DNA from: a virus
IMG/VR virus record: IMGVR_UViG_3300048016_000141
Location: 1-26,228 of that record
Strand: one strand, 5' to 3'
DNA length: 26,228 nt
This document shows, piece after piece, positions 644 to 22,550 of the stretch. The notes under the pieces were generated by a model that worked only from the letters and a program-made list of their open reading frames with translations, searched no databases and was not told the DNA's origin. The translations under genes were made by a program, and so were the position numbers. The first letter of the stretch is position 1. The number at the start of each line of letters is the position of its first letter.

Positions 644-665
644 GTCGTGACGCGACACTGCCCGA
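644..665 (+). promoter_or_regulatory. Late promoter, GTCGTGAC type (site A)
   Basis: GTCGTGAC at 644-651 is followed by a -10-like hexamer GACACT at 654-659, whose second A and last T match the invariant positions of the other sites. The motif begins exactly 22 nt before the ATG at 666, and no Shine-Dalgarno sequence precedes that ATG. The predicted transcript is leaderless. The site abuts the T tract of the terminator at 617-643. The promoter role is inferred from the repeated pattern across the window. Confidence 0.7.
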
Positions 666-1823
666 ATGGGCTTATTCCTTGATCTCTTGCATGTACCGAT
701 CCGCGCCACCAACGATATGTTGGAGGGGCTCTACAAGGCGCTTTCCGACGGCCACGACCACGGGTCTGAAGGAATTTGGAAGCCCCACGATTCACCATTG
801 GTGCGCCGCCTGATCGAGCTGTTTACCGAGCGCGGCCTCGCCCGTCTGGACGCCGTGCACCAGCAGCTGCTGGCGTGGCAGTCTGGCGCCAACCACATTC
901 CCACTGCATCCATCCAGCCAACGCCGCCCGGCACACTCGCTCGCTGGAACGAGGCGGAGCTGTCCTTGGCGCGCCTGTACCTCGAAAGCCTGCCGCCCGC
1001 CGTGTGGACGTTGGACGACCACATGATCGCCATCGAGTACGTCGTGCAGCGGCACCTGCCCGCTGGCGAGCTCGTGGCCGAGGCCGACTGGCTCGCCACC
1101 AAGGCCACGATGATGGGCAAGGTGCAGGCAAACCTCGAAGGCAAGACGCCCACAGCGAAGCAGGCCGACGCCATCCTGGCTGTGTTGCCGTCAGCTGCGG
1201 CGCAAGCCACTGCGCTGTCTGCCGCCACACAGGCCGTGCTCACGTTCGCGCGCGCGCGTGCCGCTGAGCACGTTCAGGCCCTGTCCGACAACACCCGCCA
1301 CCGCCTGCGCGCCGTGGTGGTCGCCGATCTGGAGCAGCGGGCGCTGGGCAACCTGCCGCCCGGCACCAGCAGCCTGCAGACCAAACTGCTGGACGAGTTC
1401 GGCGCCCTTAATCGAGACTGGCGCCGCATCGCTGTCACCGAGGCCGGCGAGGCCCAGTTGCAGGGCTACATCGCCAACCTGAAGCCCGGCACCAAGGTGC
1501 AGCGCGTCGAGCGGTACGAGGGCGCGTGCGCCTTCTGCCGCAGCATCGATGGTCGCGTGGTCACGGTTGTCGCCGCCGATCACCCGGACAAAAACCCCGA
1601 CACCATGATCTGGCCGGGAAAGAACAACGTCGGCCGGTCCGCATCCCCCAAGAAGCGCGTCGGTGACGTGCTGGTGGACCGCGAGCCAGACGAGATGTGG
1701 CAAATCCCAGCCGGACTTGCTCACCCGCATTGCCGTGGTCGCTGGGTACCCGTGATTGAGGACGCCCCAGGCGACGACCCGGCTTTTGCGGATGAGCTGC
1801 GGGCTATTCTTGGCGGCGCTTGA
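666..1823 (+). CDS. MuF-like (SPP1 gp7-type) head morphogenesis protein
   Basis: The 385-residue protein is probably a minor capsid component that acts with the portal during prohead assembly. The C-terminal third has the signature of the Mu F / SPP1 gp7 domain: a region starting near residue 258 with RIAVTEAGEAQ, a C-x-x-C followed by IDG (Cys288, Cys291), and a late H-P-H-C-R motif (His353 to Arg357). In this family the Cys/His residues are thought to bind a metal. The N-terminal 250 residues are helical and not recognised in detail. The ATG at 666 is chosen because the GTCGTGAC motif lies 22 nt upstream, as for other first genes of operons here. The 3' end overlaps the convergent AraC-type gene by 20 bp. 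In related phages this gene follows the portal gene, which should lie to the left. Confidence 0.75.
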   Translation: MGLFLDLLHVPIRATNDMLEGLYKALSDGHDHGSEGIWKPHDSPLVRRLIELFTERGLARLDAVHQQLLAWQSGANHIPTASIQPTPPGTLARWNEAELSLARLYLESLPPAVWTLDDHMIAIEYVVQRHLPAGELVAEADWLATKATMMGKVQANLEGKTPTAKQADAILAVLPSAAAQATALSAATQAVLTFARARAAEHVQALSDNTRHRLRAVVVADLEQRALGNLPPGTSSLQTKLLDEFGALNRDWRRIAVTEAGEAQLQGYIANLKPGTKVQRVERYEGACAFCRSIDGRVVTVVAADHPDKNPDTMIWPGKNNVGRSASPKKRVGDVLVDREPDEMWQIPAGLAHPHCRGRWVPVIEDAPGDDPAFADELRAILGGA

Positions 1824-2199
1824 ATTGCGCCGGGGTTTCCCCTTGGTCGCGCCGAAACACCCGCGTCATGTGGGACTGGTCTGAAAATCCGCACGACGCC
1901 GCCACGTTTGCGAGGCTGCAACGCCCGGCAGCCAGCTTTCGCTTGGCGCACTCCATTTTTTGTTCCAGCACGTACTCCATGGGAGTCTTGCCCGTAACGT
2001 CGCGGAAGACTCGGGCGAAGTGAAAGCGGCTCATGCAGGCGCAGTCGGCCATCTCCGACAGACTTGCATTTATTCCCTCGTCCGATTTTGCAAACGTCTT
2101 TGCGCGCTCAATGCGAGCGCGTTTGTCATTCCCCACCCTTGCCCCCTGTTTTTGTTGTGGCGCCGCGTAAGAACACACAATTTCGGCGAAGTCTCTCAT
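1804..2199 (-). CDS. Stand-alone AraC-family DNA-binding regulator
   Basis: The 131-residue protein is an AraC/XylS-type DNA-binding domain with no sensor domain. After about 20 weakly structured residues come both helix-turn-helix halves: a first around residues 45-80 (SLSEMADCACMSRFHFARVF, then GKTPMEY) and a second around residues 95-130 (SLANVAASCGFSDQSHMTR, then GETPAQFKRR). The second half matches the AraC signature closely. An alternative start is GTG at codon 22 (2136), preceded by AGGGGG, which would give only the core domain. The gene is on the opposite strand to its neighbours. It overlaps the head gene by 20 bp at its 3' end and is divergent from the helicase gene, with 38 bp between the two starts. 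It has no GTCGTGAC promoter of its own, so it is probably expressed at another time. Transcriptional regulators of this type are uncommon within phage structural clusters; it may be a late acquisition. Its target is unknown. Confidence 0.8.
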   Translation of the reverse strand: MRDFAEIVCSYAAPQQKQGARVGNDKRARIERAKTFAKSDEGINASLSEMADCACMSRFHFARVFRDVTGKTPMEYVLEQKMECAKRKLAAGRCSLANVAASCGFSDQSHMTRVFRRDQGETPAQFKRRQE

Positions 2200-2215
2200 C
2201 CAAAAGAATCATGGT

Positions 2216-2237
2216 GTCGTGACCGTATCCTCTGACG
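2216..2237 (+). promoter_or_regulatory. Late promoter, GTCGTGAC type (site B)
   Basis: GTCGTGAC at 2216-2223 is followed by TATCCT at 2226-2231, the best match here to a sigma70-like -10 box. The motif begins exactly 22 nt before the ATG at 2238, and there is no Shine-Dalgarno site between. It lies in the 38-bp divergent gap shared with the AraC-type gene. Confidence 0.7.
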
Positions 2238-5200
2238 ATGCGGCAAATCCCACGACTTCTCATCAAGGCCGACGCAATTCCGGCTGACGCCCACTGGATC
2301 ACAGTCCATCCAAACGGCCCCGGGTCGAAGGGTCAGGCCGTGCTCATCCAGCCGCACCCGGATGGCTCTGCTCGCGTCATTGGTGGCGCTGGCGGCAGCT
2401 TGAACTACCTCAAGCTGCGAGGCGTTAAATCGCACTCTGATTACAAGGCTGAAGCCGGGAAAAAGGCCGCCGATAAGCGTGTTGCACGCAAAGAACAAAC
2501 CGCCGCTGACAAAGCCGCCGGCATCCATGGTGCCAAGGAGCAGGTCCGCAAGGACATTGCAGAGCAGCGCAAGAAGGCCGAGCAGTCGGTTATCAGCGCC
2601 GTCGCCAAAAAGGCAGGCTGGGCTCCCGAGGACATGGAGTTCCCCGAGGCCGACTACGAGCATTTATCCGAATCAGCGCGCGACAAGGTGCGGTCAAAAT
2701 TCCACCGCGACCTGCTCAGCAAGGCCAAGGAGGTAATCCAGCAGAGCCGTCAAATGCTGGTGATAAGCCCCGCCGCGCGTGAAGAGGCCGGCGTTGGCGA
2801 GGTTCCGCTGTTCTCCGATTCGCCTGATGAGGTGTCTGCCGCCGACCTTGACCCTGTTCGTCCGGTTGGTGCTGGGCTGGGGTTCCAAGCCGACTACAAA
2901 GGTCGTGCCGAGGCTGCCGGGCTGTCGCAGGAGAATCTCGAAGCCGAAGCGGCCGAAGTGAAAACGGGCGGCATGACGCCCGAGCAGCGCCAGAAGGCAC
3001 TGGCAAAAGGCGACGCCGCCAAACTAATCAAACAGGAGCTGGCTGGCATCAAGGAGCCCGCTGCACCAAAGGCTGACGCCAGCCTGATTTCCGCCAAGGA
3101 CGCCCTCGATCTGGTGAAGGAGGGCAAGAAGCTCGCACTCATCGAAAAGGCCGCCCGAGAGGCCAACGCCGACGTGGACAAGTCACCCGTGGAGCCCAAG
3201 GCATTCGTGCTGGAGACTACGGACGACGTGGACGCTTCGGTGCAGGAAGACCTCAAGAACGACCTACGCACCGCTCAGACCCGCGCTTTTCTGTCCGAAG
3301 TTGGCAAAATCGCAGGGGCTCAGCCAAACGAGACCTTGGGTGGGCACATGGGCGTTGGGGCGTACAACAGCATCAACGCACTGGCTATGGCCGTGGGTGG
3401 TGACGCCCTCGTGGATCGCTCCGTGGTGGACGTGCTGGGTGTGGCTGGCGCCGCTCAGGTGCTGGCGCGCCGCCTGCACTCCGACCTCAATCCTGACGAG
3501 GTTCAGCACGTCGCCGAGGGCATCCAGGACTGGCACGTCAACCACTACATGGCCACCAGCACCAAGGCGCTGAAGCAAGCGCGGGAGCTGACCGACGCCG
3601 CGGCCGCCATCGACCTCTCGGACGAGGCCAAAACAGGCGCCGACCTAGCGGTGGCCCAAGAGCTGAATTCGCGCCGCCGCGCTGCCGTCGGGGATGCTCA
3701 GCGCATCTTGGGGCAGGCATTGGGCGAGATGGAGGCGAACGCCGCACTGGTGGTTGCCATGAAAGGCCCGGGTTCCGGCGACTTTCAGGTATCCCTTGGC
3801 AACACGTCGCCCGAGGCTGCGATCACGCAGGTTCGGGCGATTGGGCTCCAGCCCGGCGACTACGAGCTGGAGAAAGTCGGTGGCGACACATTCCTCACCG
3901 TCACGCCTGCTGGCATGGCGCGCCTTGCCAAGCCCGTTGCGCGCGAGGACATTGCCCAAGTGCGGCGCAATCTGGCAATCATGCGCGGCGACCACGACGA
4001 GGACGGCTGGCTACCCATGGGCGTCGCCAATCGGCCCGACATGGTCATGGACGTGAAGTCTGGCGTGGCCGAGCGCATGGCGCAGCCGTTCCAGCCTGGT
4101 GAAGACCTGCAGGCCAGCCTGAAGACCTATATTGGGGCGCGGGCCGCAGACGGCGACGCTCCAGCCGACATCCTGTCCGACGTTCAATCCGCCGACTTCT
4201 TCCAAAAGGTCGGGGCAGGGCGCACGGAGGAATACCGCGCTGCGCTGGACGCCGTGGCCCCACTCAAGGGCGCGGACGGCAAGCAGCAGCGCGCTGAGGC
4301 GCTGGCTGACACCTTCGATAAATACGCCGACAGCCACGTGGCCGCCTTGGGAGGCGAGCGCACCACGCTCAACCGGCAGAAATTCCAGATTGACCAGCAC
4401 TCTGTGGACGCGCTCCACCGTGCGCTGGCGGAAACCCCAGAGGGCACCGCCGCCTACAAGCAAATCGGCGAGCTGACCAACAAGGACCAATCTGCCCTGC
4501 GCGAGCATTTTTACCGCCACATCGCCCGTGAGGACGCCGCCGCTGGTGCCATGCGCAAGGAGCTGGAGGAACACATCGCCGGCGAGCCCGAGAAAGAGTC
4601 TACCGATATGTTCGGGGACACTGTGCCCAACCCTGATTGGCAGGACTGGAAAACGCACCGCGACGGCATGGCTGCCAAGCTCAACGCCAGCAGCCTCACG
4701 TGGTCCAAGTACCTCAAGACAATGGGCGGCAACGAGCGTGCCTACGAAGCCGTGCAGGACGTTATTCGCTCGAAGATGGCCAGCTCGTTTATCGACGCCC
4801 ACAACAAGCTCAACCCGGACGCGCCCATGAAGCTGGGCAAGCGCACCATCCGAAACAACCTCAACCACTTGGACGCCGTTGACCCAGCCGCCCGCGAGGC
4901 TCGGCTGGCAAAGGACAAAGAGCTGGTGGACCGGCTGCGCAACCGGGTGGGTGGCAAGTATTCCAGCGGCTCAGTTGCCGACAAGATTGACGCCGCCAAG
5001 CAGGAGCAGGCCGCGTTTGAGCAGGCGCAGATGGGGTTCTTTTCGTCCGAGGACGCACCGGAGTCCACTGGACCCGGTCAGGACGGCGCTCCCGTGCCGC
5101 TGGGGGCTGACGAGCGCCACACCTTGGGGCACGCCGCCGAGCGGCAGATTGCGGCCATGGTGGGCCACGTTGGCGAGAATTTCAAACCCGGCCAGCCCAC

Positions 5201-6788
5201 GAAGCTATGGGGCGTATCCATGTCGGGCAAGTACGCCGCCCAGCAGCGCGCGATCAAGCTGGTAGCAGCCAATAAGCGCGCCATGCTGGCCGCCGGTGCC
5301 GGGTCAGGCAAAACCAACATGATGCTCGGTTCCCACGCGCACCTGTCTGGCATGGGAAAGGTCAAGCGGTCGATCATGATGGTGCCATCCGTCGTGCAGG
5401 GCCAATTCTCCGGCGAGGCATTGCGCCTGCTGGAACCCGGCAAGTTCAAGACCCACATTCAGCCCGGGGCGAGCCAGTCCGAGCGCATCGCAGCCTACAA
5501 GGACGCCGGCACGCACATTTGCGTCATGACCCACCAATCCTTCCGCGACGACATGGTGCACCTCGGCGCCAAGCACGCCGGAATTGACGAAGGCGCCATG
5601 ACGGCGAAGCTGCAGAGTATGAGCACCGACCAGCGGCGCGATTGGGCGGCTGGCGTGATGGGGAAAGAGGGTATCAACTTCGACGCTTCGTTTGTGGACG
5701 AGTCCCACGACACACTAAACCGGGCGGGGAAGGAAAATTCCAGCCTGGCCAACGTCATCGAGGCGGTCGGCCACCACACACCGTACCACGTGCTCTCGTC
5801 AGGCGACCCGGTAAAGAACGACGCCAGCGAGATTCACTCGATGCTGCAAAAGATGGACCCCAGCCGCTACGGCGACCGGGCGGCCTTCATGCGCCGCTAT
5901 GGCGCTGACACCATCGCCAGCAAGGAGGCGCTGCAGCGGGAAATGGCCCGCTACGTGTTCCCGACCTCCATCACGCCCGACGTCGCCGTCAGCCGCAGCA
6001 CGGAGACCGTGCCGCTGTCCAAGGGGCAGCAACAGGCTCTTGGTGAGCTCGACAAGCACCTGGCCCGCGCTCGCCTGGCGCAGCGCGCTGGCAAGGTGGA
6101 CGTGGAGGCCGTGCGCCACATCTCGCCCGGTTCGTTTGATGGTGTTCCCGAGGCGGAGCACGAGGCCGTGGCCGCCAAGCTGCAGAAGGCCGTGGGCATG
6201 CTCAAGTCGTCGGCGGTGAACCGCGTTATCAACACCCACCCCGACAACGCCAAGGTGCAGCGCGCCGTGGAGATGGTGCAGGCGCGGCCGGGCAAGCAGG
6301 GCGTGATCTTCGCCCGCAACCGCGAGGCCGTCAGCCAGTACAAGGCAGCCATGGAGAAGGCCGGGCGCAAGGTAGTGGTCATCACAGGCAGCGACAGCGC
6401 CAAGGAAAAAGACGCCAAGCGCCGAATGTTCAACCCGGAGCAGGGTGAGGCGCAAGCCGACGTGTTGATTGCGTCCGATGCTGGTGCCGTGGGCATGAAC
6501 CTGCAATCGGGCCAGTTCCTGATCCAGCACGATATCAGCCAGACGGCCAAGACGCACAGCCAGCGGAATGCCCGCATTCACCGCCTGGGGCAGAAGAATG
6601 GCGTGGAGCTGATCGACCTGCAGGGTGACCACCCGGAGGAACGCCGCAGCCGCGAGCGACTGGACCGCAAGTACGGACTCAAGAATATGATGGCTTCGCC
6701 GCTGGATGGGCTTGACGATACTGGCGTGGCTGGTGCCATTGCGGCCCGGCGCGCGGCAGCGCAGTCCGACCAGCAGGGTTTGTTTTGA
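2238..6788 (+). CDS. Giant polyvalent protein with C-terminal SNF2/DEAD-like helicase
   Basis: This is the largest gene of the window (1516 residues). The C-terminal third is a superfamily 2 helicase of SNF2 type: Walker A GAGSGKT at residues 1020-1026, Walker B/motif II DESH at 1154-1157, a motif V region (VGMNLQS) near residue 1416, and motif VI QRNARIHRLGQ at 1442-1452, a pattern typical of SNF2 proteins. The first 60 residues contain an HPNG...KGQAVLI...GGAGGSLNYLKLRG segment, a pattern I associate with phage head-region proteins, followed by a Lys/Ala/Glu-rich helical stretch. Residues 120-1000 are not recognised. It lies in the head cluster under its own promoter. By analogy with P1 DarB, a helicase-containing antirestriction protein carried in the capsid, it may be packaged and injected with the DNA to protect or process it. 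That role is inference; the helicase domain is clear. SNF2 proteins use ATP to move along double-stranded DNA. Confidence 0.85.
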   Translation: MRQIPRLLIKADAIPADAHWITVHPNGPGSKGQAVLIQPHPDGSARVIGGAGGSLNYLKLRGVKSHSDYKAEAGKKAADKRVARKEQTAADKAAGIHGAKEQVRKDIAEQRKKAEQSVISAVAKKAGWAPEDMEFPEADYEHLSESARDKVRSKFHRDLLSKAKEVIQQSRQMLVISPAAREEAGVGEVPLFSDSPDEVSAADLDPVRPVGAGLGFQADYKGRAEAAGLSQENLEAEAAEVKTGGMTPEQRQKALAKGDAAKLIKQELAGIKEPAAPKADASLISAKDALDLVKEGKKLALIEKAAREANADVDKSPVEPKAFVLETTDDVDASVQEDLKNDLRTAQTRAFLSEVGKIAGAQPNETLGGHMGVGAYNSINALAMAVGGDALVDRSVVDVLGVAGAAQVLARRLHSDLNPDEVQHVAEGIQDWHVNHYMATSTKALKQARELTDAAAAIDLSDEAKTGADLAVAQELNSRRRAAVGDAQRILGQALGEMEANAALVVAMKGPGSGDFQVSLGNTSPEAAITQVRAIGLQPGDYELEKVGGDTFLTVTPAGMARLAKPVAREDIAQVRRNLAIMRGDHDEDGWLPMGVANRPDMVMDVKSGVAERMAQPFQPGEDLQASLKTYIGARAADGDAPADILSDVQSADFFQKVGAGRTEEYRAALDAVAPLKGADGKQQRAEALADTFDKYADSHVAALGGERTTLNRQKFQIDQHSVDALHRALAETPEGTAAYKQIGELTNKDQSALREHFYRHIAREDAAAGAMRKELEEHIAGEPEKESTDMFGDTVPNPDWQDWKTHRDGMAAKLNASSLTWSKYLKTMGGNERAYEAVQDVIRSKMASSFIDAHNKLNPDAPMKLGKRTIRNNLNHLDAVDPAAREARLAKDKELVDRLRNRVGGKYSSGSVADKIDAAKQEQAAFEQAQMGFFSSEDAPESTGPGQDGAPVPLGADERHTLGHAAERQIAAMVGHVGENFKPGQPTKLWGVSMSGKYAAQQRAIKLVAANKRAMLAAGAGSGKTNMMLGSHAHLSGMGKVKRSIMMVPSVVQGQFSGEALRLLEPGKFKTHIQPGASQSERIAAYKDAGTHICVMTHQSFRDDMVHLGAKHAGIDEGAMTAKLQSMSTDQRRDWAAGVMGKEGINFDASFVDESHDTLNRAGKENSSLANVIEAVGHHTPYHVLSSGDPVKNDASEIHSMLQKMDPSRYGDRAAFMRRYGADTIASKEALQREMARYVFPTSITPDVAVSRSTETVPLSKGQQQALGELDKHLARARLAQRAGKVDVEAVRHISPGSFDGVPEAEHEAVAAKLQKAVGMLKSSAVNRVINTHPDNAKVQRAVEMVQARPGKQGVIFARNREAVSQYKAAMEKAGRKVVVITGSDSAKEKDAKRRMFNPEQGEAQADVLIASDAGAVGMNLQSGQFLIQHDISQTAKTHSQRNARIHRLGQKNGVELIDLQGDHPEERRSRERLDRKYGLKNMMASPLDGLDDTGVAGAIAARRAAAQSDQQGLF

Positions 6789-7276: not shown

Positions 7277-7298
7277 GTCGTGACGCAAGAATTCGCTC
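7277..7298 (+). promoter_or_regulatory. Late promoter, GTCGTGAC type (site C)
   Basis: GTCGTGAC at 7277-7284 is followed by AAGAAT at 7287-7292. The motif starts exactly 22 nt before the ATG at 7299, with no Shine-Dalgarno site. The first 16 bases are identical to site F at 22529. It would drive the protease-scaffold-capsid operon. Confidence 0.75.
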
Positions 7299-8207
7299 AT
7301 GACCAGCGAAGCGCAGCTGATTGCGGACCTCCCCGATTACCTCAGTATCGAAATGATGCTGAAAGCCACGCCTGCTCAGGAAGGCGGGAGTCGATTCGTC
7401 TATCTGGAGGCTTCCCGCGAGGCGCGAGACCAGCAGAACGAGATTGTTCTGGCAAAGGCTCTTGAAGAGTCGGCCGGGCACTACCTCAAGTTCGGTAACA
7501 TCGACCTCGACCACAAATCAATGCCAGCCGTCGCCAAGATGTACGGCATCGACAACCCAGAGCACTGGGAAATCGGCACGCCAGTTGATGTCCGTGTGAG
7601 CGGCGCATCTACCTTCGTGAAGGCTCAACTCTTTACCGGCGACACGCCACTAGCCAAGCGCGCAAATGAGGTGTGGGACAGCATGACGAAGCTGAGCCCG
7701 CCCCGCAAGTGGTACCCCAGCGTTGGCGGCAAGGTGTTAGCCAAGTCCACCCGCATCGACCCCGATACCGGCGACCGCGTTGGCGTCGTCAGTGGCGTGC
7801 GTTGGACAAACATCGCACTTAGCCAGCACCCGGTGAATCAAACCGTCGGTGGTGTGTCTACGATCCCTTTCGGTGTCCTGGCGAAGTCCTGGGGCGCGGG
7901 CGGCTTCGATATGGCCAAAGCCCTCGAAGCCTCTTACGCCACGGATGCCACAGCAAAAACCGGCGGAGCCGCTCTGACCACTCAGTCCTTGGACGGTGGG
8001 TCGCGCTCCCCGAAGTCATATTTCGACTTTCGTGAACGTCTCGCGGCCGCCGTCAAAAGCGGCAAGGTCAGCGACACGTCTGCGAATGGCTTGATGCACT
8101 ACAGCGCAGAAGCCTTCGTGCTCTCGCTCGATGAGTCGGCCGAGTGGGTGGATCGCTTTCTAGGTGATCTAAAATCAGGTCTTTCCAAAAACCGGAGAAT
8201 TAAATGA
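7299..8207 (+). CDS. Probable prohead (capsid maturation) protease
   Basis: The 302-residue protein resembles HK97-type prohead serine proteases. An N-terminal beta-rich domain carries D-L-D-H-K with candidate catalytic His72, then GTPVDVRV and a W-Y-P-S-V-G-G motif with candidate nucleophile Ser141. That His-then-Ser order is typical of the family. Residues 190-300 form a Ser/Gly/Ala-rich linker and a helical tail, which may interact with the scaffold. It would cleave the scaffold and capsid N terminus during maturation. Position supports the call: it is directly upstream of a scaffold-like gene and the capsid gene. ATG 7299 is supported by the promoter motif 22 nt upstream. The stop overlaps the next start. 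Confidence 0.65.
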   Translation: MTSEAQLIADLPDYLSIEMMLKATPAQEGGSRFVYLEASREARDQQNEIVLAKALEESAGHYLKFGNIDLDHKSMPAVAKMYGIDNPEHWEIGTPVDVRVSGASTFVKAQLFTGDTPLAKRANEVWDSMTKLSPPRKWYPSVGGKVLAKSTRIDPDTGDRVGVVSGVRWTNIALSQHPVNQTVGGVSTIPFGVLAKSWGAGGFDMAKALEASYATDATAKTGGAALTTQSLDGGSRSPKSYFDFRERLAAAVKSGKVSDTSANGLMHYSAEAFVLSLDESAEWVDRFLGDLKSGLSKNRRIK

Positions 8208-10824: not shown

Positions 10825-10848
10825 AGCCGCCTTCGGGCGGCTTTTTTT
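10825..10848 (+). terminator. Terminator abutting promoter site D
   Basis: A 7-bp stem (AGCCGCC 10825-10831 with GGCGGCT 10836-10842) closes a TTCG tetraloop and is followed by a run of T to 10848. The promoter motif begins two bases later at 10850, the same terminator-promoter arrangement as at 617-644. Confidence 0.85.
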
Positions 10849-10849
10849 C

Positions 10850-10871
10850 GTCGTGATGCAATGATTGCCGC
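10850..10871 (+). promoter_or_regulatory. Late promoter, GTCGTGAT type (site D)
   Basis: GTCGTGAT at 10850-10857 is followed by AATGAT at 10860-10865, matching the invariant A and T of the set. The predicted transcription start (10872) is 4 nt before ATG 10876, so this is the one site where the start codon is not exactly at +22. An in-frame ATG at 10861 lies inside the -10 element and would not be transcribed. Confidence 0.65.
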
Positions 10872-10875
10872 CATC

Positions 10876-11955: not shown

Positions 11956-12596
11956 TGCGGTTCAATTCGTCGGCGTTTGATCGCCACCTATCCAACATCG
12001 GACAGTCCGTGGACTGGCGGCGCTCCTATGCCTGTGCGTGCGTCAACCCACAATCAGGCGCGGCCGACCCGAAGCACATACTGTGCTCCGGCAAGGGCCG
12101 CCTGTGGGATGAGCCCGTGCGGACGGTGACCGGCATCGCGGGGCAGGAGACATTGGCGGAGTGGGCGCAGTCCGGGCAGTGGGAGTCCGGCGACACCGTG
12201 CTCAGCATTCCCCAGTCCAGCCCGTTGTGGGACGCCGGCCAGTTCGACCGCGTTGTCATGCTCAACGCCACCGATGTGTTCAGCCAGCCGCTGCTGCGTG
12301 GTGCGCCTGCGGAGCGCCTGATATTCGCAGTGGCCAGCGTCACGCGATGTTTCTGGCTGCATCCGACCACTCGCCTTGTTGTGGAGGGCGGTTTGCCGGT
12401 GATCGGTACCGACGGTCGCCCCACGTGGCCCGGCGGCGTGGGCGAGCCGCCTGCAGGCACCAGCTACTCCCTGACTGGGACGCGGTATCTTGAATATTTC
12501 GTGTGGGCAGCTCTGCCCAGTAATCGGAACATGCACAGCGGCATGCGCCTGCCCAAGAAGGTAGTCGCCCGCAAGTGGGACTTGTTCAGCCGCTGA
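11955..12596 (+). CDS. Probable head-closure/neck protein
   Basis: The 213-residue protein has a Cys-containing N-terminal segment (Cys27, Cys29, Cys44 in CACVNP...HILCSGKGRLWD) and then a beta-rich domain (GDTVLSIPQSSPLWDAGQFDRVVMLNATD) of the kind seen in head-closure or connector proteins. It starts at the last base of the connector gene stop. Its last 11 bases overlap the 3' end of the minus-strand gene, so the two are convergent. Function is inferred from position between adaptor and tail terminator genes. Confidence 0.5.
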   Translation: MRFNSSAFDRHLSNIGQSVDWRRSYACACVNPQSGAADPKHILCSGKGRLWDEPVRTVTGIAGQETLAEWAQSGQWESGDTVLSIPQSSPLWDAGQFDRVVMLNATDVFSQPLLRGAPAERLIFAVASVTRCFWLHPTTRLVVEGGLPVIGTDGRPTWPGGVGEPPAGTSYSLTGTRYLEYFVWAALPSNRNMHSGMRLPKKVVARKWDLFSR

Positions 12597-13458
12597 TCGT
12601 CTTTTTCACGGCGGCCGCAAACGCCGCCTCGGCCTTGGGCTGCATGGCCTGGGCGACACCTCTGGCGAGGAACTTGCCGGGCTGCGCCGGGATGACCCAC
12701 TTGCCGGTTGCGCCCTCCATCATGATTCTGAACGTCATAAGCTGAGACGACTTTCCGCCGCCCGGCGTGCTGGTGTCCATGCGAACCATGCCCGCGTAGC
12801 GTTTCGCTGACGCCGCGTCCATCCCTGCGCCTTTGAGCGCCCCCATCGTCAGTCTGCCGCCCCATGCGTACTTGCGGGCTGCCACCATTGAGGCCTGTTT
12901 TGTCTTTGGGTTGCTTAGGAACGGTGTCTGCTTGCTGGCCGCCGACATGCCGGATTTCGGGGACAGGTTCGTGACCTCCCCGCTGGGGCGTTGCCCCATG
13001 GAGACCACGCGCGACGGCGCCATGGCCGATGCGAGGTTGTGTACAGCGGCTGGCACTGCGCTTGCGTGCGCAGTGTTACCCGGGGTGTTATGGCGCATGG
13101 GTATGACCAGAAACCGGCGCCCATCCTTGGTGCGCCTGACCTTCTGGCTTGTCAGTAGCATCTGCTTTAGGTCGCGTGGCCCGCGCCCGGTTTCGATCTC
13201 GGCGGCGTGCTTGTAGTCGGTTTCGACCATCGCGCTAAAGTCGCCCGTCATCTGCCACTTGATGCTCTGGGCGTATGCGTCCTTTTCCCCGCTCCATAAC
13301 TTGGCCTGGTGCACGGCCTTCTGCCAATCGATTGCAGTCTGTTGCGCCACAGCGCGCACAGCCTGGTTTAGTAGCGGCATCACCTGAGAATTGATGCCTG
13401 CCGCGAGTTCGAGCTGGGCACCGGCGGAGAACGTGATCGTGTAGCTGAGTGCACTCAT
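12586..13458 (-). CDS. Minus-strand head-tail completion-like protein
   Basis: The 290-residue protein lies on the minus strand in the middle of the plus-strand neck module. It resembles HK97 gp10-type completion proteins in outline: a helical start (NQAVRAVAQQTAIDWQKAVHQ), basic segments (VRRTKDGRRFLVIPMRHNT), a Ser/Ala-rich middle, and a C-terminal MTFRIMMEG...GKWVIPAQPGKFLARG followed by a helix (PKAEAAFAAAVKKTI). ATG 13458 is supported by a promoter motif placed exactly 22 nt upstream on the same strand. Its 3' end overlaps the closure gene by 11 bp. The middle (residues 125-215) is a long insertion relative to gp10 proteins of about 120-170 residues. The gp10-like call is tentative. Confidence 0.6.
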   Translation of the reverse strand: MSALSYTITFSAGAQLELAAGINSQVMPLLNQAVRAVAQQTAIDWQKAVHQAKLWSGEKDAYAQSIKWQMTGDFSAMVETDYKHAAEIETGRGPRDLKQMLLTSQKVRRTKDGRRFLVIPMRHNTPGNTAHASAVPAAVHNLASAMAPSRVVSMGQRPSGEVTNLSPKSGMSAASKQTPFLSNPKTKQASMVAARKYAWGGRLTMGALKGAGMDAASAKRYAGMVRMDTSTPGGGKSSQLMTFRIMMEGATGKWVIPAQPGKFLARGVAQAMQPKAEAAFAAAVKKTISG

Positions 13459-13480
13459 GTCTTGATTGTGTTGTCACGCC
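13459..13480 (-). promoter_or_regulatory. Late promoter on the minus strand (GGCGTGAC type)
   Basis: Read on the minus strand, GGCGTGAC (13480-13473) differs at one base from the plus-strand motif. It is followed by CACAAT (13470-13465) with the invariant A and T, and begins exactly 22 nt before ATG 13458. No Shine-Dalgarno site precedes that ATG. It lies back to back with site E (13483), two bases apart. Confidence 0.65.
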
Positions 13481-13482
13481 CG

Positions 13483-13504
13483 GTCGTGATGTAAAAATTC
13501 GGGC
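13483..13504 (+). promoter_or_regulatory. Late promoter, GTCGTGAT type (site E)
   Basis: GTCGTGAT at 13483-13490 is followed by AAAAAT at 13493-13498. The motif begins exactly 22 nt before GTG 13505, which selects that GTG over the ATG at 13514. It forms a divergent pair with the minus-strand copy and would drive the neck and tail operon. Confidence 0.7.
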
Positions 13505-14341
13505 GTGATCTCCATGGTGCAACCACTCCACGTCGGCAATGCGCTGCGGCTCTTTATCGAGCCGCCAGCTGGTGCCGTCCGGTGGAAGGTGCTTCGCAAG
13601 GGGTCTAATACATTTTCCAGCCACGACGACGCATCGGCGGTCGTGGCCTATGAGGGTGACGAGCGTGTAATCGTTGACTCTGCCTTCCTGCAAAATCAGG
13701 TGATGGCCTTCTATCGGCCGTTCTACACGTCCGATGGCTTGGTCTGGACGGCTGGACCAACGGCCAGCGGCACGCCTGATGCTATCTATGAGGACATGAG
13801 CGTCGACGTGCTGTCGGTGCTCCGTCAACGGATTGAGTCCGGCCTCCTGGTGGAGTGCCAACGCGGCAACTTCGCCACCGAGCTTGGTTACATCCAGGTT
13901 TACACCGCATCCCCGTCGCTTGAGCGCGACCTGGCCATGCCACTCGTGACCGTGCACCTCGAAAACGAGGAACCCGGCGAGCGGTTTGTTGGCGAGGACA
14001 TGATCGGCGACCAGTTCGACGAGATTGGCGGCGATTGGTCAGAGTCCGAGGGGTGGCTGGCAAACGTCAGCGTGACCCTGATCGGCTGGAGCTTGAACAG
14101 CGACGAGCGGCTGGAGCTTCGCAAGGCCATACGACGGATCGTCGTGGCAAACCTGCCGGTGTTCGCTGACGAGGGGTGGCAGCAGTGCGGCCTGTCGCAG
14201 CAGGACATTGATGCCGTCAACGGCGAGTATCCCGCTCACATCTACCAGGTGATGAGCACGTTCACCTGCCTTGCCCCGGTTCGCGTTGCGGGTCGAGTGA
14301 ACAGCGTCATCAACGAAGTAATTTTAAGGAGCGCCAATTGA
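13505..14341 (+). CDS. Probable tail terminator protein
   Basis: The 278-residue protein has an N-terminal beta-rich domain (residues 5-85, with ALRLFIEPPAGAVRWKVLRKG). A C-terminal domain (residues 98-278) follows, starting with DVLSVLRQRIESGLLVE and including MPLVTVHLENEEPGERF and SVTLIGWSLNSDERLELRKAIRRIV. That helix-then-sheet layout and the position directly before the sheath gene suit a tail terminator (gpU-like), which caps the tail and joins it to the head. GTG 13505 is preferred because of the promoter spacing; ATG 13514 is the alternative. The stop overlaps the following TTG start. The extra N-terminal domain is unusual for a terminator. Confidence 0.5.
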   Translation: MISMVQPLHVGNALRLFIEPPAGAVRWKVLRKGSNTFSSHDDASAVVAYEGDERVIVDSAFLQNQVMAFYRPFYTSDGLVWTAGPTASGTPDAIYEDMSVDVLSVLRQRIESGLLVECQRGNFATELGYIQVYTASPSLERDLAMPLVTVHLENEEPGERFVGEDMIGDQFDEIGGDWSESEGWLANVSVTLIGWSLNSDERLELRKAIRRIVVANLPVFADEGWQQCGLSQQDIDAVNGEYPAHIYQVMSTFTCLAPVRVAGRVNSVINEVILRSAN

Positions 14342-16734: not shown

Positions 16735-16768
16735 GCCGCCCCTCCAATGGTGGAGCGGCGGCTTTTTT
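16735..16768 (+). terminator. Terminator between tail tube and chaperone genes
   Basis: The stem GCCGCC (16735-16740) with GGCGGC (16757-16762) and CTCCA (16742-16746) with TGGAG (16751-16755), with one C-C mismatch between them, closes an ATGG loop and is followed by TTTTTT (16763-16768). No GTCGTGAC promoter follows, so the downstream chaperones and tape measure would depend on read-through. Confidence 0.8.
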
Positions 16769-16785
16769 CATGAATGGGATTCAAT

Positions 16786-17163: not shown

Positions 17164-17365
17164 AAAGTACAGCCTGCCGGCGACTGATCCACGCTTTTTG
17201 GATGCTACGCCGGAGGAGATGCTTGCGGACTACTACGCGCACCTGTTCCACGACGATCCGAAGGCTTTGGAGGCTGTGGAAGACGACGATTTCAACCCCG
17301 ACGATGTGGCTGCGCTGATCGGGGCCAACAACCCGGATGAATGGGAAGATGTGAGCACTTTATGA
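17135..17365 (+). CDS. Tail assembly chaperone extension (gpT-like)
   Basis: As a free ORF from GTG 17135 this gives 76 residues, but the frame is open back to 17045 and no good ribosome site precedes the GTG. It is probably the C-terminal part of a frameshifted chaperone, like lambda gpGT or Mu gp41. It is acidic, with VEFWYRKKYSLPATDPRFLDATPEEMLADYYAHLF and a Asp/Glu-rich end. Its stop overlaps the tape measure start (ATGA). If not made by frameshift, it could begin at GTG 17144 using GGGTGA as a weak ribosome site. Confidence 0.6.
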   Translation: MTTVEFWYRKKYSLPATDPRFLDATPEEMLADYYAHLFHDDPKALEAVEDDDFNPDDVAALIGANNPDEWEDVSTL

Positions 17366-20217
17366 CAAGCAAAATTGGTATTGGCGTAGAGGCGCAATTC
17401 GACACCTCGGGTATTGAGCAGAAAATCAATAGCCTGGGTCAGAAAATCGCAGCGGCGAACAAGGTGCAGTTCACGCCGTTTTCCGGCACGACCAAGGCTG
17501 ACCTTGACAAGATGGTCAGGCAATTCGAGCAGCTGCGCAAAATTCAGGGCGACTTGAATAAGCGCATGAAAGAGACGGGGCAGGGTGGCGCAAGCCTGTT
17601 GAACGTGGATTGGGAGAAGCTCTACGCTGACCCTAATTCCCGCGCCCGGCAAATGCGCAAGGCCTTTGAGTATTCGACTGGCGCATCCTTCGCTGGTGGC
17701 GGTCAGCAGCCCACCAATCCACAGCCCACCAATCCACAGCATGGCCCGCCTGGCGCGCCTCACGTCACGCCGACGTGGCAGCGCGTCACGCAGGCTGGCT
17801 TGGGGTCTGCTGGCCCCGCTGGCGGCGTTGCAGCCAATGCCTTGGGCACTGGCATGTCCGCTGGCTTTGGTGCCGGGCTCATGGGCCTTATGGGCGGTAT
17901 GCTGGCGCTGGGTGTGGGCAAGCTGGTCAGCGGCGTCATGGAGAAGATCGACCAGGCCGAGCGCAACAACATTGGGCTCGACACCCTGAAGCGGACGCTG
18001 GGCGACGTGAACGTTTCGTTTGCTGCGCTTAAATCCGTGGTTCACGGCAGCGCCGACAACCTGAAGATCACCTACGACGAGGCCGGGCGCCTGGCCGCGC
18101 AGTTCACCAAGCTGGGGAACGTCACCACCGACCAGTACAAGACCATCAGCGACGAGTTGGACGTGGGTGTGGGCATGTCTCGCGCCTTCGGCCTCGACCC
18201 GTCACAGGGCGTGGGCGTGATGGGCCAGATGCGCGGCCTCGGCGTCACCAGCAACACGACAGAGAGCCGTCGGTTCGCGTTGCTGATCGGCGAGACCATC
18301 GGCAAGGCCGGGGCGTTTGCCAAGGCCGAGGAAGTCATGGACGCCTTGGGCGGGTACGCCGCCGCTCAGACCCGTAGCAACATGGGCGTGGCCAACGTCG
18401 CGGGCTACGCCGGCATGTTTTCCAGCATGGTGGGCTCTGGCATCCCGGGCATGGACCCGGCTGGAGCAGCAAGCCTGCTGGGACGCATCAATGGATCGCT
18501 GTCTGCGGGTGGCGCCAAGGGCGAGGCCTCGCAGTTCTTCACATCCATGGTTGGGGCCCGCATGGGACTCGACCCGTTCCAGACCCAGATTCTGCGCGAG
18601 GGTGGTGCGTTTGCCACCAACGACGAGGCGTTTGGTGAAGGCAGCATTGCTAAGCGTTTTGGCATCAGCGGACCCGGTGGCGACAAGACGTTCCTCCAGT
18701 CGTCGCTGGAACAAATGCGCGGCCAGTACGGCAAGAACAATAAAATGCTGGCTCAGGCCACGGCGAACCACTTGGGCATCAACATGCGGCAGGCCATGGG
18801 CATCCTGTCCGTGGACCCGAACCAGATCGGGGAGATGCAGAAGTTTGGCGACCTGTCCAAACTGTCCGGCAACGGCATCGGCAACCTGTCCAAGGCGTTG
18901 TATGGGTCCGACGCCGACCGCAAGGGCTTGTCTGACACGCTTCTGAGCCGAAAGGATGTGAGCGGAGCCGACAAGGAAGAGCTGCGTCGCTCGCTGGGCA
19001 CCCCCATGGAGCGCGAAACGCTGGCCAAGCTCACCGCTCAGTACGATCAGGAGCGCACCCAAGGCTCGGATATCCGCGACAGTAAAAACAGCCTCGACAA
19101 CATCAAGACCAACTTGGCCGACAAGCTGGTGCCAATCGTGGACCAGATGCGCCACGGCATCATGTACATGGCCGGCGGCGGCAAGAAGTCGCCCAAGGAA
19201 ATCATGGCCGAGGTCATGGCGCTGGAGTCCCGGGACAAGGTGGCTGGCATCAAGGGCAGTTTTGAGGCGCAGCGGCTCGGGGCTATTGGCGAGGCCGAGT
19301 CCATTCGCGTGAAGCGCAACACGGCCGTGGCGGAGCTAAAGAAGAACTTTGGCTCCATGACGCCAGAAGAGATTGAGCGCGCGCAAAAGAACATCACCGA
19401 ACTGACAGACGAATACGCCCGCAAGTCTGAGGACGTGCGCAAGCGCATTCTTGATCTGCAGGAAAAAGAAGCCTTGGCGATTGAGGCCGAGACCAAGGAG
19501 CGGGAGAAGCGCATCGAGCAGATGCGCAAGGAAAGCACCGACCCAGAAATCACCGGCAGCATCAACCAGTCGGCAGCCGAAGGCTCTCGACTGGGTCGTC
19601 TTGGGAGTGCTCCTGCAGCCGCGGGCGGCGGCGGTGGTCGCAGCTACACGTCAAGCGGTGGCGCGGAGGCTCCCGGCACGTTTGACGACCTGTTCGTGAA
19701 GTACGGCAAGCAGTACGGCGTGGACCCGCGTCTCTTGAAGGCCATGGCCATGAAAGAGTCCAACATGCGCCCTGGCGCGGTGGGTGGCGTCAACCGCAAC
19801 GGCACCCGGGACTATGGTTTGATGCAGCACAATTCCGCCTTCCTGGCTGAGCGTGGCCTGACAGATGATTGGCGCAATCCCGAGCGATCAATCGAAGAGG
19901 CGGCCAAGCTACTCAAGAACAACATTCAGCGGACGGGCAGCGTGCGCTCTGGTGTTCGCGCCTACAACGGCTCAGGCCCGGCTGCCGAGGCCTATGCCGC
20001 CGATATCATGGCCCGCGTTGAGGGTACCAAGATCGGGGAGGGGACGCCGCTGCCATCCGGCGCCGGGTCTGGTCGCGGTGGTGTGAACCCGTCCTACAAC
20101 ATTAGCGCCGACGACATTACCGTGCGCGTGGTGGATGCAAACGGTCGGCCCATGGGCGCACCGCAGCAGGTCCAGACGCGCGTCCAGTCGAACTGGCGTC
20201 CTTCCATGGGATACTAA
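17362..20217 (+). CDS. Tape measure protein with C-terminal lytic transglycosylase domain
   Basis: The 951-residue protein sets tail length and probably acts in DNA passage. ATG 17362 is chosen over 17341 because it overlaps the stop of the chaperone extension (ATGA). Residues 150-220 contain Gly/Ala-rich hydrophobic segments typical of tape measures. The bulk is helical with Lys/Glu-rich coiled-coil stretches (residues 620-740). Residues about 770-890 are an SLT-type lytic transglycosylase domain: YGVDPRLLKAMAMKESNMRP, with likely catalytic Glu799, then GTRDYGLMQ and RAYNGSG. This domain would cut peptidoglycan to let the tail tube enter the periplasm. A QPTNP repeat (residues 116-125) comes from a 15-bp tandem duplication at 17707-17736. 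Confidence 0.9.
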   Translation: MTSKIGIGVEAQFDTSGIEQKINSLGQKIAAANKVQFTPFSGTTKADLDKMVRQFEQLRKIQGDLNKRMKETGQGGASLLNVDWEKLYADPNSRARQMRKAFEYSTGASFAGGGQQPTNPQPTNPQHGPPGAPHVTPTWQRVTQAGLGSAGPAGGVAANALGTGMSAGFGAGLMGLMGGMLALGVGKLVSGVMEKIDQAERNNIGLDTLKRTLGDVNVSFAALKSVVHGSADNLKITYDEAGRLAAQFTKLGNVTTDQYKTISDELDVGVGMSRAFGLDPSQGVGVMGQMRGLGVTSNTTESRRFALLIGETIGKAGAFAKAEEVMDALGGYAAAQTRSNMGVANVAGYAGMFSSMVGSGIPGMDPAGAASLLGRINGSLSAGGAKGEASQFFTSMVGARMGLDPFQTQILREGGAFATNDEAFGEGSIAKRFGISGPGGDKTFLQSSLEQMRGQYGKNNKMLAQATANHLGINMRQAMGILSVDPNQIGEMQKFGDLSKLSGNGIGNLSKALYGSDADRKGLSDTLLSRKDVSGADKEELRRSLGTPMERETLAKLTAQYDQERTQGSDIRDSKNSLDNIKTNLADKLVPIVDQMRHGIMYMAGGGKKSPKEIMAEVMALESRDKVAGIKGSFEAQRLGAIGEAESIRVKRNTAVAELKKNFGSMTPEEIERAQKNITELTDEYARKSEDVRKRILDLQEKEALAIEAETKEREKRIEQMRKESTDPEITGSINQSAAEGSRLGRLGSAPAAAGGGGGRSYTSSGGAEAPGTFDDLFVKYGKQYGVDPRLLKAMAMKESNMRPGAVGGVNRNGTRDYGLMQHNSAFLAERGLTDDWRNPERSIEEAAKLLKNNIQRTGSVRSGVRAYNGSGPAAEAYAADIMARVEGTKIGEGTPLPSGAGSGRGGVNPSYNISADDITVRVVDANGRPMGAPQQVQTRVQSNWRPSMGY
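17707..17736 (+). repeat. Two tandem 15-bp units in the tape measure gene
   Basis: Two exact copies of a 15-bp unit (CAGCCCACCAATCCA) lie at 17707-17721 and 17722-17736 and encode QPTNP twice, in a linker before the hydrophobic region. Repeat number could vary between related phages. Confidence 0.9.
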
Positions 20218-20222
20218 CGGCC

Positions 20223-21779
20223 ATGGCAACGCTTCAAGATGCAACCCCGCGCTGCGCGGTATGGCTTTTCAAAACCATTGACCGCCGGACGATTGACGGC
20301 AAGTCAGGCGTATCCACACGGTACCAAGGAAAAGACCCCTATATTGATCTGTCCCCATTTCTTGGGGACGGCTCATCCGTGCGGACGAGCAAGTCGGTGC
20401 GCGAGCCCGCCGGTGGCTGGTCCATCACTTTCATGGATGCCGCTCAGAAGGACTGGGTGTCGAACTTCACGCCTCCCGGTTTCCAGTCGCTGGAGAGCGT
20501 CTACGGCCTCGTGGAGCCCATGGACGTGATCGAGATACGCATGTGGAGCGGGGTCGGCCCTGCGCCGCTTGGCGGCAAGTACCCCATCGTCATGCGCGGC
20601 TTCGTGTCCGAGGTGCACCGCAGTCAGAGCATGGGCCAAGACGGCACGCCGCAGCGGCAGGTGACCATCACCGGGCAGGACTACGGGAAAATCTGGCAGA
20701 CGTTCCAGGTGCTGCACCTGCCGTCCTATGTCGAAGGCAAGGCGTTGCTCACCAGCTTCAACCTGTCGGAGCTCTTTGGCGTCAGCGTGGTCGCGGCCCT
20801 GCCGGCTGGGGAGTTCATTCGGCAGATGGTCGAGAAGATCATCAACCCGCACCTGGCTGGCTTTCTGCCAGACACGCTGCCTTCGGACATTCCGAAAAAA
20901 ATACAGACCGGCGACAGCATCTCGGTCAAGCACGGGTCGGTGAACCAGTCGTTTCAATCCATGCAGGGCTCGCTCTGGGACATCATGCGCCTGCACGGCG
21001 ATGTTGGCGTCTGGAACGAGCTGTACGTGGAAGACCGCGAGGACGGCGTGCACTGCGTGTACCGGGCCATCCCGGCTCTGCACCTCACGGCGCCGGAAGG
21101 CTCCACCGACCGCAAAATTCAGGACGATGCGCCCGACCCCATTTATGTGCTGGTGCTGGATGAGCACATCGTGAGCATGTCCGTGATGCGGACCGATGCC
21201 GCGGTGGCTAACTTCTACTGGGTCAACAACAGCCGCTTTGACCTGATTGATGACATGCAGCGCAAGCTGTCGGCCATCGCTGAAAACAGCGAAACTGTTT
21301 CCACCCGCGAATACCCCAACACCGCCGTGAAGTATTACGGCGTGCGGCCCATGTATGCCGAGACGCAGCAGGCCGGGGACGAAATCACCAACCAGCAAAG
21401 CGGGCAGCCTGAAAAGGAGCACGACGAGCGGTCGGTCAAGCAGGAGGCGTGGATCGAGCGCCGTCGCCGCCACATGATGGAAATGAACCGGGACAACGTC
21501 GTTCTGGAGCGCGGCACAGCCCGCATCAAGGGTGGGCTTATGCGCCCCGGTAGCGCGGAAATGCTGAAGGCCGGCGACTGCGCCCGCTTTGTTGTCGGGC
21601 GCATGGTGTGGGACGCCTACATCGTCCAGGTGGACCAGGAGTTCATCCCGTACCAAGGCTACGTGACCACGCTCACATTCGAGCGCGGCGAGGGTTTTGC
21701 GTTGCGCACGGCTATGGAGGGGCAGTCGTCCTCGCCGTGGCTTGTTGAGCAATCCAGCCGATTTGGGGTGCTGCCATGA
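20223..21779 (+). CDS. Baseplate hub protein (Mu gp44 / gpD-like)
   Basis: The 518-residue protein follows the tape measure gene and precedes the spike gene, the place of the trimeric hub that joins the tube to the spike. The start is beta-rich with VRTSKSVREPAGGWSITFMD and DVIEIRMWSG near residues 55-110, then VMRGFVSEVHRSQS...RQVTITGQDYGK, a pattern shared by hub proteins of the gpD/Mu gp44 type. The C-terminal part includes a helical MEMNRDNVVLERGTARIKGG region and a strand-rich end. No strong ribosome site is visible, and translation is likely coupled to the tape measure gene 5 bp upstream. The stop overlaps the spike start (ATGA). Confidence 0.7.
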   Translation: MATLQDATPRCAVWLFKTIDRRTIDGKSGVSTRYQGKDPYIDLSPFLGDGSSVRTSKSVREPAGGWSITFMDAAQKDWVSNFTPPGFQSLESVYGLVEPMDVIEIRMWSGVGPAPLGGKYPIVMRGFVSEVHRSQSMGQDGTPQRQVTITGQDYGKIWQTFQVLHLPSYVEGKALLTSFNLSELFGVSVVAALPAGEFIRQMVEKIINPHLAGFLPDTLPSDIPKKIQTGDSISVKHGSVNQSFQSMQGSLWDIMRLHGDVGVWNELYVEDREDGVHCVYRAIPALHLTAPEGSTDRKIQDDAPDPIYVLVLDEHIVSMSVMRTDAAVANFYWVNNSRFDLIDDMQRKLSAIAENSETVSTREYPNTAVKYYGVRPMYAETQQAGDEITNQQSGQPEKEHDERSVKQEAWIERRRRHMMEMNRDNVVLERGTARIKGGLMRPGSAEMLKAGDCARFVVGRMVWDAYIVQVDQEFIPYQGYVTTLTFERGEGFALRTAMEGQSSSPWLVEQSSRFGVLP

Positions 21780-22519
21780 GTATGCGTCAGGGTATCGTGG
21801 TGGATGTCCACCCGGAGGATCACTCCGTCGATTTGGTCATGATGGACGACGGCTCCCGCATGATCGGTGTGCAGGTGCTCACTCCAAACGGCAGCGCCCG
21901 CTCGGGCTCGGTCAATATGCCGAGCGTGCCGGCGCGTGCGGACAAGTGGGACATCACCAAGCGCAATGGGCAGGACCAGATTGCGCTCGTCGGGTTTGTG
22001 AGAAACAACCCGGTCGTGGTTGGCTACCTGTTCCCGCAAATTTCGCAGATGACATTCAAGGAGCAGGACCGCGCCTTCACGCGCCACACGTCCGACGTTT
22101 ACTCCACCGTGGATGCCAGCGGCAACATGGAGCTGCACCACCCCAGCGGGGCCTTTGTGCGGTTTGCCGAAAGCCTGGAGCACGAAGACCTGGGCGGTAA
22201 GAACGTGGACAAGAACCTCGCTCTTGACCGCAACACCGGGCGCAATATCGGGGTGCGCGTGTTCGTGCCTGGAGCGTTCGATTTGAGCCTGACGCCCGAC
22301 GGCGCGCTCAGCTTGACGGTGTCCAAGGGTGGCGCGCTGGAGTTCGCCGAGGCGCTTACCATCAAGGCTCCGTCCGTCACGCTCGATACGCCGAGCACCC
22401 ATATCACCGGCCCTGTCGTGGTGGATGGCGACGTGACGATTGAAGGCATCAGCTTCCTGGAGCACGTGCATAGCGGCATCCTGCGTGGCCCGGCCAACAC
22501 CGACCCGCCCGTCGGCTGA
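21776..22519 (+). CDS. Baseplate spike protein (gpV / Mu gp45-like)
   Basis: The 247-residue protein has the layout of the membrane-piercing spike. An N-terminal OB-fold (residues 1-110, with GIVVDVHPEDHSVDLVMMDDG and DQIALVGFVRNNPVVVGYLFPQ) is followed by a beta-helix of repeated strands (residues 165-225). A tip has a H-V-H motif (His230, His232), then SGILRG and a final TDPPVG. In P2 gpV and relatives this HxH binds the iron ion at the tip, so the same is likely here. It starts inside the stop of the hub gene and ends 9 bp before promoter site F. Confidence 0.8.
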   Translation: MSMRQGIVVDVHPEDHSVDLVMMDDGSRMIGVQVLTPNGSARSGSVNMPSVPARADKWDITKRNGQDQIALVGFVRNNPVVVGYLFPQISQMTFKEQDRAFTRHTSDVYSTVDASGNMELHHPSGAFVRFAESLEHEDLGGKNVDKNLALDRNTGRNIGVRVFVPGAFDLSLTPDGALSLTVSKGGALEFAEALTIKAPSVTLDTPSTHITGPVVVDGDVTIEGISFLEHVHSGILRGPANTDPPVG

Positions 22520-22528
22520 TCTGCTGTC

Positions 22529-22550
22529 GTCGTGACGCAAGAATGGCGGG
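22529..22550 (+). promoter_or_regulatory. Late promoter, GTCGTGAC type (site F)
   Basis: GTCGTGAC at 22529-22536 is followed by AAGAAT at 22539-22544. The motif begins exactly 22 nt before the ATG at 22551. The first 16 bases equal those of site C at 7277. The short spacer GGCGGG before the ATG is not a good ribosome site. It would drive the late baseplate operon to the end of the window. Confidence 0.75.

What the first reader, a model, noticed from the sequence alone, without database searches (positions are those of the whole stretch)
644..22550. Family of GTCGTGAY promoters that place the transcription start on the start codon
Seven sites share GTCGTGA(C/T), one with GGCGTGAC: 644, 2216, 7277, 10850, 13483 and 22529 on plus, and 13480 on minus. 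In every site a hexamer NANNNT begins 10 bases after the motif start (GACACT, TATCCT, AAGAAT, AATGAT, AAAAAT, AAGAAT, CACAAT), with the A and T that matter most in sigma70-type -10 boxes. In six of seven the motif starts exactly 22 nt before the start codon; the seventh is 26 nt away. That geometry puts +1 on the start codon. None of these genes has a Shine-Dalgarno site. I infer a phage-specific late promoter class, without a -35 box, that makes leaderless mRNAs for the first gene of each operon. Three things set it apart: the fixed distance to the codon, the divergent minus-strand copy, and use across head, neck and baseplate operons.
Basis: partly seen in the sequence, partly recalled or inferred. 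Interest (0 to 1): 0.9.

Follow-up and report, generated by a model that had tools for sequence, protein, structure and literature searches.

The report
Phage late promoters making leaderless mRNAs
A family of about 90-kb bacterial viruses carries a short DNA switch in front of its late genes that appears to start many messages exactly on the first codon, so that these genes are read only when their own switch is on.

Summary
All seven sites exist; six start exactly 22 nt before the start codon and one 26 nt before it. The window is a fragment of a ~93-kb myovirus related to Bordetella phage PHB04, Aeromonas ST4, Pseudomonas Dolphis/Jeremy and Yersinia fHe-Yen8-01. Near-complete relatives carry 7-20 copies of GTCGTGAY-N3-A-N2-[A/C]-T, almost all on the late-gene strand, against 0.05-0.3 expected. 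Of 232 non-redundant sites, 125 place ATG/GTG at 22 (94) or 23 (31) nt. Those genes lack Shine-Dalgarno (SD) sequences and have C at -1 in 78%. I infer a phage-specific late promoter: 8-mer at -22..-15, sigma70-like -10 with A(-11)/T(-7), no -35, +1 on the start codon. Read-through RNA would be terminated or have its SD masked, while the promoter's own transcript loses the 5' arm, as in T4 late genes. The recognising factor is unknown: no sigma70 region-2 match; an orphan zinc-type protein is a weak candidate. No start was mapped experimentally. I found no earlier description of this promoter class.

The parts
644..659 (+). late-type promoter GTCGTGAC-GC-GACACT; predicted +1 = A666 of ATG
   Evidence: conserved in L018,L019,L044
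617..637 (+). intrinsic terminator stem of the upstream transcript; its T-tract abuts the promoter at 644
666..1823 (+). 385-aa gene driven by the 644 site; no PHROG or Pfam family; the predicted protein looks like a Mu gpF-type head protein (my reading)
2216..2231 (+). late-type promoter GTCGTGAC-CG-TATCCT; predicted +1 = A2238
2238..6788 (+). 1516-aa helicase gene (phrog_62; Helicase_C, DEAD), leaderless-type
7277..7292 (+). late-type promoter GTCGTGAC-GC-AAGAAT; predicted +1 = A7299
7299..8207 (+). head maturation protease (phrog_1028), leaderless-type
10825..10842 (+). intrinsic terminator stem; its T-tract abuts the promoter at 10850
10850..10865 (+). late-type promoter GTCGTGAT-GC-AATGAT; predicted +1 near 10872/10873, 3-4 nt before ATG10876
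10876..11955 (+). 359-aa gene (phrog_772; 'head-to-tail adaptor' in Dolphis/ST4) driven by the 10850 site
13483..13498 (+). late-type promoter GTCGTGAT-GT-AAAAAT; predicted +1 = G13505 of GTG
13505..14341 (+). 278-aa neck gene (orthologue of 'head-to-tail adaptor'), GTG start, leaderless-type
13465..13480 (-). divergent promoter GGCGTGAC-AA-CACAAT; predicted +1 = A13458; the GGCGTGAC variant recurs at this gene in several relatives
12586..13458 (-). 290-aa minus-strand virion-block gene (phrog_16819), leaderless-type
22529..22544 (+). late-type promoter GTCGTGAC-GC-AAGAAT; predicted +1 = A22551
22551..23738 (+). 395-aa baseplate-block gene (phrog_1011), leaderless-type

Best explanation
The sites are promoters of the phage's late regulon. 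A still unidentified, probably phage-encoded, DNA-binding factor contacts GTCGTGAY at -22..-15 and lets sigma70-type RNA polymerase open an otherwise weak -10 (N-A-N-N-[A/C]-T, with A-11 and T-7 fixed) without a -35. The enzyme starts 7-8 nt downstream of the -10. At slightly over half of the sites that position is the A of the start codon, so the mRNA is leaderless. Elsewhere a normal leader with SD follows, or a hairpin whose 5' arm begins just after the -10 and straddles +1. Read-through transcripts from upstream cannot express these genes well: leaderless genes have no SD, hairpins terminate or mask the SD or start codon, and some sites sit behind a terminator. Expression of each cistron is thus tied to its own late promoter. 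Shown by sequence: the motif, spacing, strand bias, -10 bases, lack of SD, terminators and hairpins, and conservation in diverged phages. Inferred: +1, leaderless translation, late timing, the factor and hairpin gating.
For: Consensus from 117 sites in relatives: A at position 11 in 95-97% and T at position 15 in 95-98%, though neither was used to select sites; no other conserved upstream column. Offset peak at 22/23. C at -1 in 98/125 leaderless-type genes against 299/792 controls, as expected for a C(-1)A(+1) start. SD depleted. Near-complete relatives have 7-20 sites, almost all on the structural-gene strand. In Dolphis all exact sites lie outside the replication block, at portal, protease, neck, baseplate and virion-enzyme genes. 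GenBank annotators, unaware of the motif, chose the same start at 8 PHB04 and 5 Dolphis genes. Sites directly follow terminators. 21 of 107 non-leaderless sites have a hairpin with its 5' arm at position 11-19 (control windows 2-6); mean dG is -14.3 from position 16 but -5.5 from +1. Some of these hairpins are terminators followed at once by the start codon, or mask GGAGG (Dolphis 28081, ST4 3897, Yen8-01 30137, PHB04 702, G009 59056), which makes sense only if transcription starts inside the 5' arm.
Against: No 5' end has been mapped. No recogniser is proved: no sigma70 region-2 match in nine complete phages, and the Zn-type protein's fold matched nothing solved. GC-rich -10 boxes without T-12 are weak for sigma70, so another polymerase is not formally excluded; the RNA_pol search had no positive control. 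Mecenats66, an outgroup with ~39% MCP identity, lacks the exact motif and has only a few variant copies.
Confidence: 0.83

Rival explanations
1. Same promoters, but +1 lies right after the conserved T (position 16): short 6-nt leaders and 5'-terminal protective hairpins, as expected for a T7-like single-subunit polymerase with a compact 16-bp promoter.
For: Hairpin 5' arms peak at position 16; the compact motif and back-to-back divergent promoters 2 bp apart in the window would suit a small polymerase.
Against: Several such hairpins are U-tract terminators or mask the gene's own SD, which would be self-defeating if the transcript carried them whole. C at -1 of the start codon and exact 22/23 spacing are unexplained. 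The A-11/T-7 pattern is a sigma-region-2 signature. No RNA_pol match (search without a positive control).
Confidence: 0.09
2. A phage-encoded divergent sigma factor, rather than host sigma70 plus an activator, reads the whole 16-bp element.
For: T4 gp55 and SPO1 gp28 are precedents; Pfam could miss a divergent sigma; the element is read as one rigid unit with fixed 2-bp spacing.
Against: No Sigma70_r2 match at E<=1 in nine complete phages; most of the G001 proteome also gave none.
Confidence: 0.25
3. The motif is a translational or RNA-level signal upstream of SD-less genes, not a promoter.
For: Fixed distance to the start codon at the leaderless-type genes; no SD there.
Against: Nearly half the sites are further from the start codon and many of those have SDs; sites directly follow terminators; the -10-like A/T pattern.
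Confidence: 0.03
4. Ordinary host promoter (sigma70 extended -10, sigma54 or another host sigma) used without any phage factor.
For: When position 7 is T, position 8 is G in 34/43, giving a TGn extended -10.
Against: 189 of 232 sites have C at position 7 and so no TGn; an 8-bp GTCGTGAY is not a known host element (my knowledge).
Confidence: 0.08

Closest known systems
T4 middle promoters (MotA box plus sigma70 -10, sigma appropriation)
   Same: Phage-specific element replaces the -35 while the sigma70 -10 is kept
   Different: MotA box is (a/t)(a/t)(a/t)TGCTTtA, 12+/-1 bp from the -10 (PMC2988021); here an 8-mer 2 bp from the -10, a late-gene regulon and frequent leaderless starts; no MotA/AsiA shown
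T4 late genes e, soc, 49, I-TevI: promoter inside an inhibitory hairpin
   Same: Long read-through RNA forms a hairpin hiding SD/AUG; the late promoter's RNA lacks the 5' arm (PMC3014915, PMC2988022)
   Different: Here the hairpin abuts the -10 of a different promoter class, is sometimes also a U-tract terminator, and alternates with leaderless starts across one regulon
Thermus phage phiYS40 leaderless middle/late mRNAs
   Same: Most middle/late mRNAs lack leaders (PMC3594737)
   Different: Thermus host, where leaderless genes are common (PMC3160421); here proteobacterial hosts, where they are rare, and a different promoter element
Thermus phage P23-45 extended -10 middle/late promoters
   Same: Late promoters that do not depend on a -35 (PMC7403470)
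   Different: Extended -10 TG; here GTCGTGAY, TGn only in a minority

Membership tests
T4-type MotA middle promoter | MotA box centred at -30, 12+/-1 bp from the -10 | tested here: not met
   8-mer at -22..-15, 2 bp from the -10; nothing conserved further upstream
T4-type late promoter | TATAAATA at -10 read by gp55 | tested here: not met
   -10 consensus is N-A-N-N-[A/C]-T
Extended -10 sigma70 promoter | TGn directly upstream of the -10 | tested here: not met
   189 of 232 sites have C at position 7; TG in 34/232
sigma70-type -10 element | A-11 and T-7 | tested here: met
   95-98% each without selection in the 117-site set
Leaderless gene | start codon at +1, no SD | tested here: inconclusive
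   Geometry, -1 C and SD absence fit; no 5'-end mapping is available
T4 e / I-TevI type hairpin-gated late gene | hairpin masks SD/AUG in read-through RNA, promoter start lies inside the 5' arm | tested here: inconclusive
   Met on predicted structure at 21 of 107 non-leaderless sites; neither the RNA fold nor the start inside the arm was measured
T7-like single-subunit RNAP promoter | phage-encoded RNA_pol (PF00940) | tested here: inconclusive
   No match in nine complete phages, but the search had no positive control
Phage sigma factor regulon | phage-encoded sigma70-family region 2 | tested here: not met
   No PF04542 match at E<=1 in nine phages; control rang in 11 of 14 genomes; a very divergent sigma would be missed
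AraC-activated regulon | AraC-family protein present wherever the motif is | tested here: not met
   Present in 7 of 10 motif-positive complete phages; missing in G007, Yen8-01 and phiT5282EW

The most novel reading that the evidence does not exclude
The conserved orphan cysteine-rich protein (about 173 aa, eight conserved Cys, no family or PDB fold match; PHB04 61034-61555 -) is a new kind of late transcription factor. It would bind GTCGTGAY next to the -10 and redirect host sigma70 RNA polymerase to start on AUG, so that one factor switches a whole proteobacterial phage regulon to leaderless or hairpin-gated mRNAs.
Probability: 0.15. Interest if true: 0.75.

Novelty: new variant of a known kind. 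Interest (0 to 1): 0.62.

Why it matters
It gives a testable late-transcription code for a large, barely studied group of ~90-kb myoviruses (most with an integrase) found in alpha-, beta- and gamma-proteobacteria, whose late switch I found no report of. Leaderless mRNAs are rare in these hosts, so one phage infection would supply several natural leaderless messages. The pairing of leaderless starts and promoter-in-hairpin designs under one promoter suggests a common purpose: each late gene can be translated only from its own late transcript. The fixed 16-bp element is also a bait for finding a new transcription factor and a compact promoter for expression tools.

Tried and rejected
AraC regulator (window 1804-2199 -) as reader of the motif: rejected as obligatory, because three motif-positive phages lack it. 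TraR/DksA-like and HTH_17 proteins: missing in two and three motif-positive phages, linked with the integrase block. p97 HTH-like protein: in all motif-positive phages, but a match exists in Mecenats66 too. p173 co-occurrence test: all 13 further p173-positive records have the motif, but they are the same phage lineage (those long enough carry the MCP), so the test is not independent. De novo motif search in Mecenats66: no strong motif; two variant copies (39560, 46183). Inverted repeats flanking the motif: weak excess only (6 against 0.7 expected at 6 bp or more among leaderless sites), not pursued. Papers: an exact-string search for GTCGTGAC with phage gave nothing relevant; the Mecenats66 paper, which compares it with PHB04 and Dolphis, has no promoter analysis.

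Full report
What the window is. The window is a 26,228-bp IMG/VR virus record that encodes a myovirus head-neck-tail-baseplate block: head maturation protease, major capsid protein, tail sheath, tape measure/lysin and baseplate wedges. It is nearly identical to positions 64775-91002 of a 93,362-bp contig (G001, reverse-complemented). The nearest named phages by capsid protein are Aeromonas ST4, Bordetella PHB04, Pseudomonas Dolphis and Jeremy, Yersinia fHe-Yen8-01 and Enterobacter phiT5282EW at 59-69%, then Touem01 and Morganella Mecenats66 at ~40%. A related prophage lies in Microvirga lupini.

The observation. All seven sites are as described. Of nine exact GTCGTGAY in the window, the six with A at position 11 and T at position 15 all precede genes. 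The three without them lie inside ORFs. Two sites (644, 10850) directly follow the T-tract of an intrinsic terminator, so the downstream gene needs a start within a few dozen nt.

It is a conserved regulon. In 88 loci the offset from G[TG]CGTGA[CT] to an ATG that opens an ORF peaks at 22 (115) and 23 (39), against 1-16 elsewhere. In 117 sites chosen only by the 8-mer and an ATG at 22/23, A at position 11 and T at position 15 came out at 95-98%. Near-complete relatives carry 7-20 exact sites, almost all on one strand, against 0.05-0.3 expected; the reversed-pattern control is 0. GenBank start calls agree at 13 genes of PHB04 and Dolphis. The prophage in an alphaproteobacterium has leaderless-type sites too. 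In Dolphis the exact sites avoid the replication block.

Where transcription starts. If the -10 is positions 10-15, +1 falls on 22-23. Four signs fit. (1) The start codon sits there in 125 of 232 non-redundant sites. (2) The base before it is C in 78% against 38% in controls. (3) SD is depleted: 4/125 against 397/792 with a match of 4 or more nt. (4) At 21 of 107 other sites a hairpin begins at position 11-19 and spans +1 (control windows 2-6). Examples are Dolphis 28081 (10-bp stem, T-run, then ATG), ST4 3897, Yen8-01 30137, PHB04 702 (CCTCCGT...ACGGAGG) and G009 59056 (GACCTC...GGAGGTC). If the transcript began at position 16 these would stop it or hide its own SD. If it begins at 22-23 the 5' arm is lost and mean folding energy rises from -14.3 to -5.5 kcal/mol. 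I read this as gating of read-through transcripts. T4 e, soc, 49 and I-TevI work this way (PMC3014915, PMC2988022).

The class is not purely leaderless. Leaderless, leadered with SD, and hairpin-spanning designs share one promoter. What unites them (inference) is that translation depends on the dedicated late transcript.

Who reads it. No RNA_pol or Sigma70_r2 match was found in nine complete phages; the sigma search had a working positive control, the RNA_pol search did not. AraC, TraR/DksA-like and HTH_17 proteins are not universal. One orphan protein with eight conserved cysteines is in 10/10 motif-positive complete phages and has no match in Mecenats66. Its AlphaFold model (pLDDT 78) matched nothing solved, and its wider occurrence is within the same phage lineage. 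It is a candidate only. A TGn extended -10 exists in a minority, linked to T at position 7 (34/43).

Compared with what is known. It works like T4 middle promoters in replacing the -35 by a phage element, but the element, its distance and the regulon differ. Leaderless late mRNAs are known from Thermus phiYS40 and late promoters of the extended -10 class from P23-45. I found no earlier report of this motif or of leaderless late regulons in these phages; the paper library is partial. Verdict: a real, new variant of phage late promoter; start sites and factor remain to be proved.

Noticed in passing
window 1804-2199 (-): A short AraC-type HTH protein (HTH_18) lies between two leaderless-type operons; AraC-like proteins also occur in PHB04, ST4, Dolphis and Jeremy at other places.
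   Followed up: partly
window 13465-13498: Two divergent promoters of the class sit back to back with a 2-bp gap; the minus copy is the GGCGTGAC variant in several relatives (PHB04, Dolphis, G009, L043, L045, L047, L165).
   Followed up: partly
L090:14034-14555 (-) (PHB04), L136:10001-10573 (+): Orphan protein with eight conserved Cys, near the start of a divergent, probably early operon, next to a second small zinc-ribbon-like protein; no known family or fold.
   Followed up: partly
window 1-600: About 600 bp with several inverted repeats, an intrinsic terminator at 13-49 and no convincing ORF; no Rfam or tRNA match.
   Followed up: no
L166:2932 (+): A marine metagenome-bin contig carries GTCGTGACCTTAGATT followed by a hairpin masking GGAGGA before ATG, the same gating design in a distant relative.
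   Followed up: partly
L131 and L132 (Mecenats66 record positions 39560 and 46183): The outgroup phage has only a few relaxed copies (GTCGTGATGGTTTAAT, ATCGTGATGGGATAAT) at orthologous genes, suggesting the motif drifted or was sharpened after the split.
   Followed up: no
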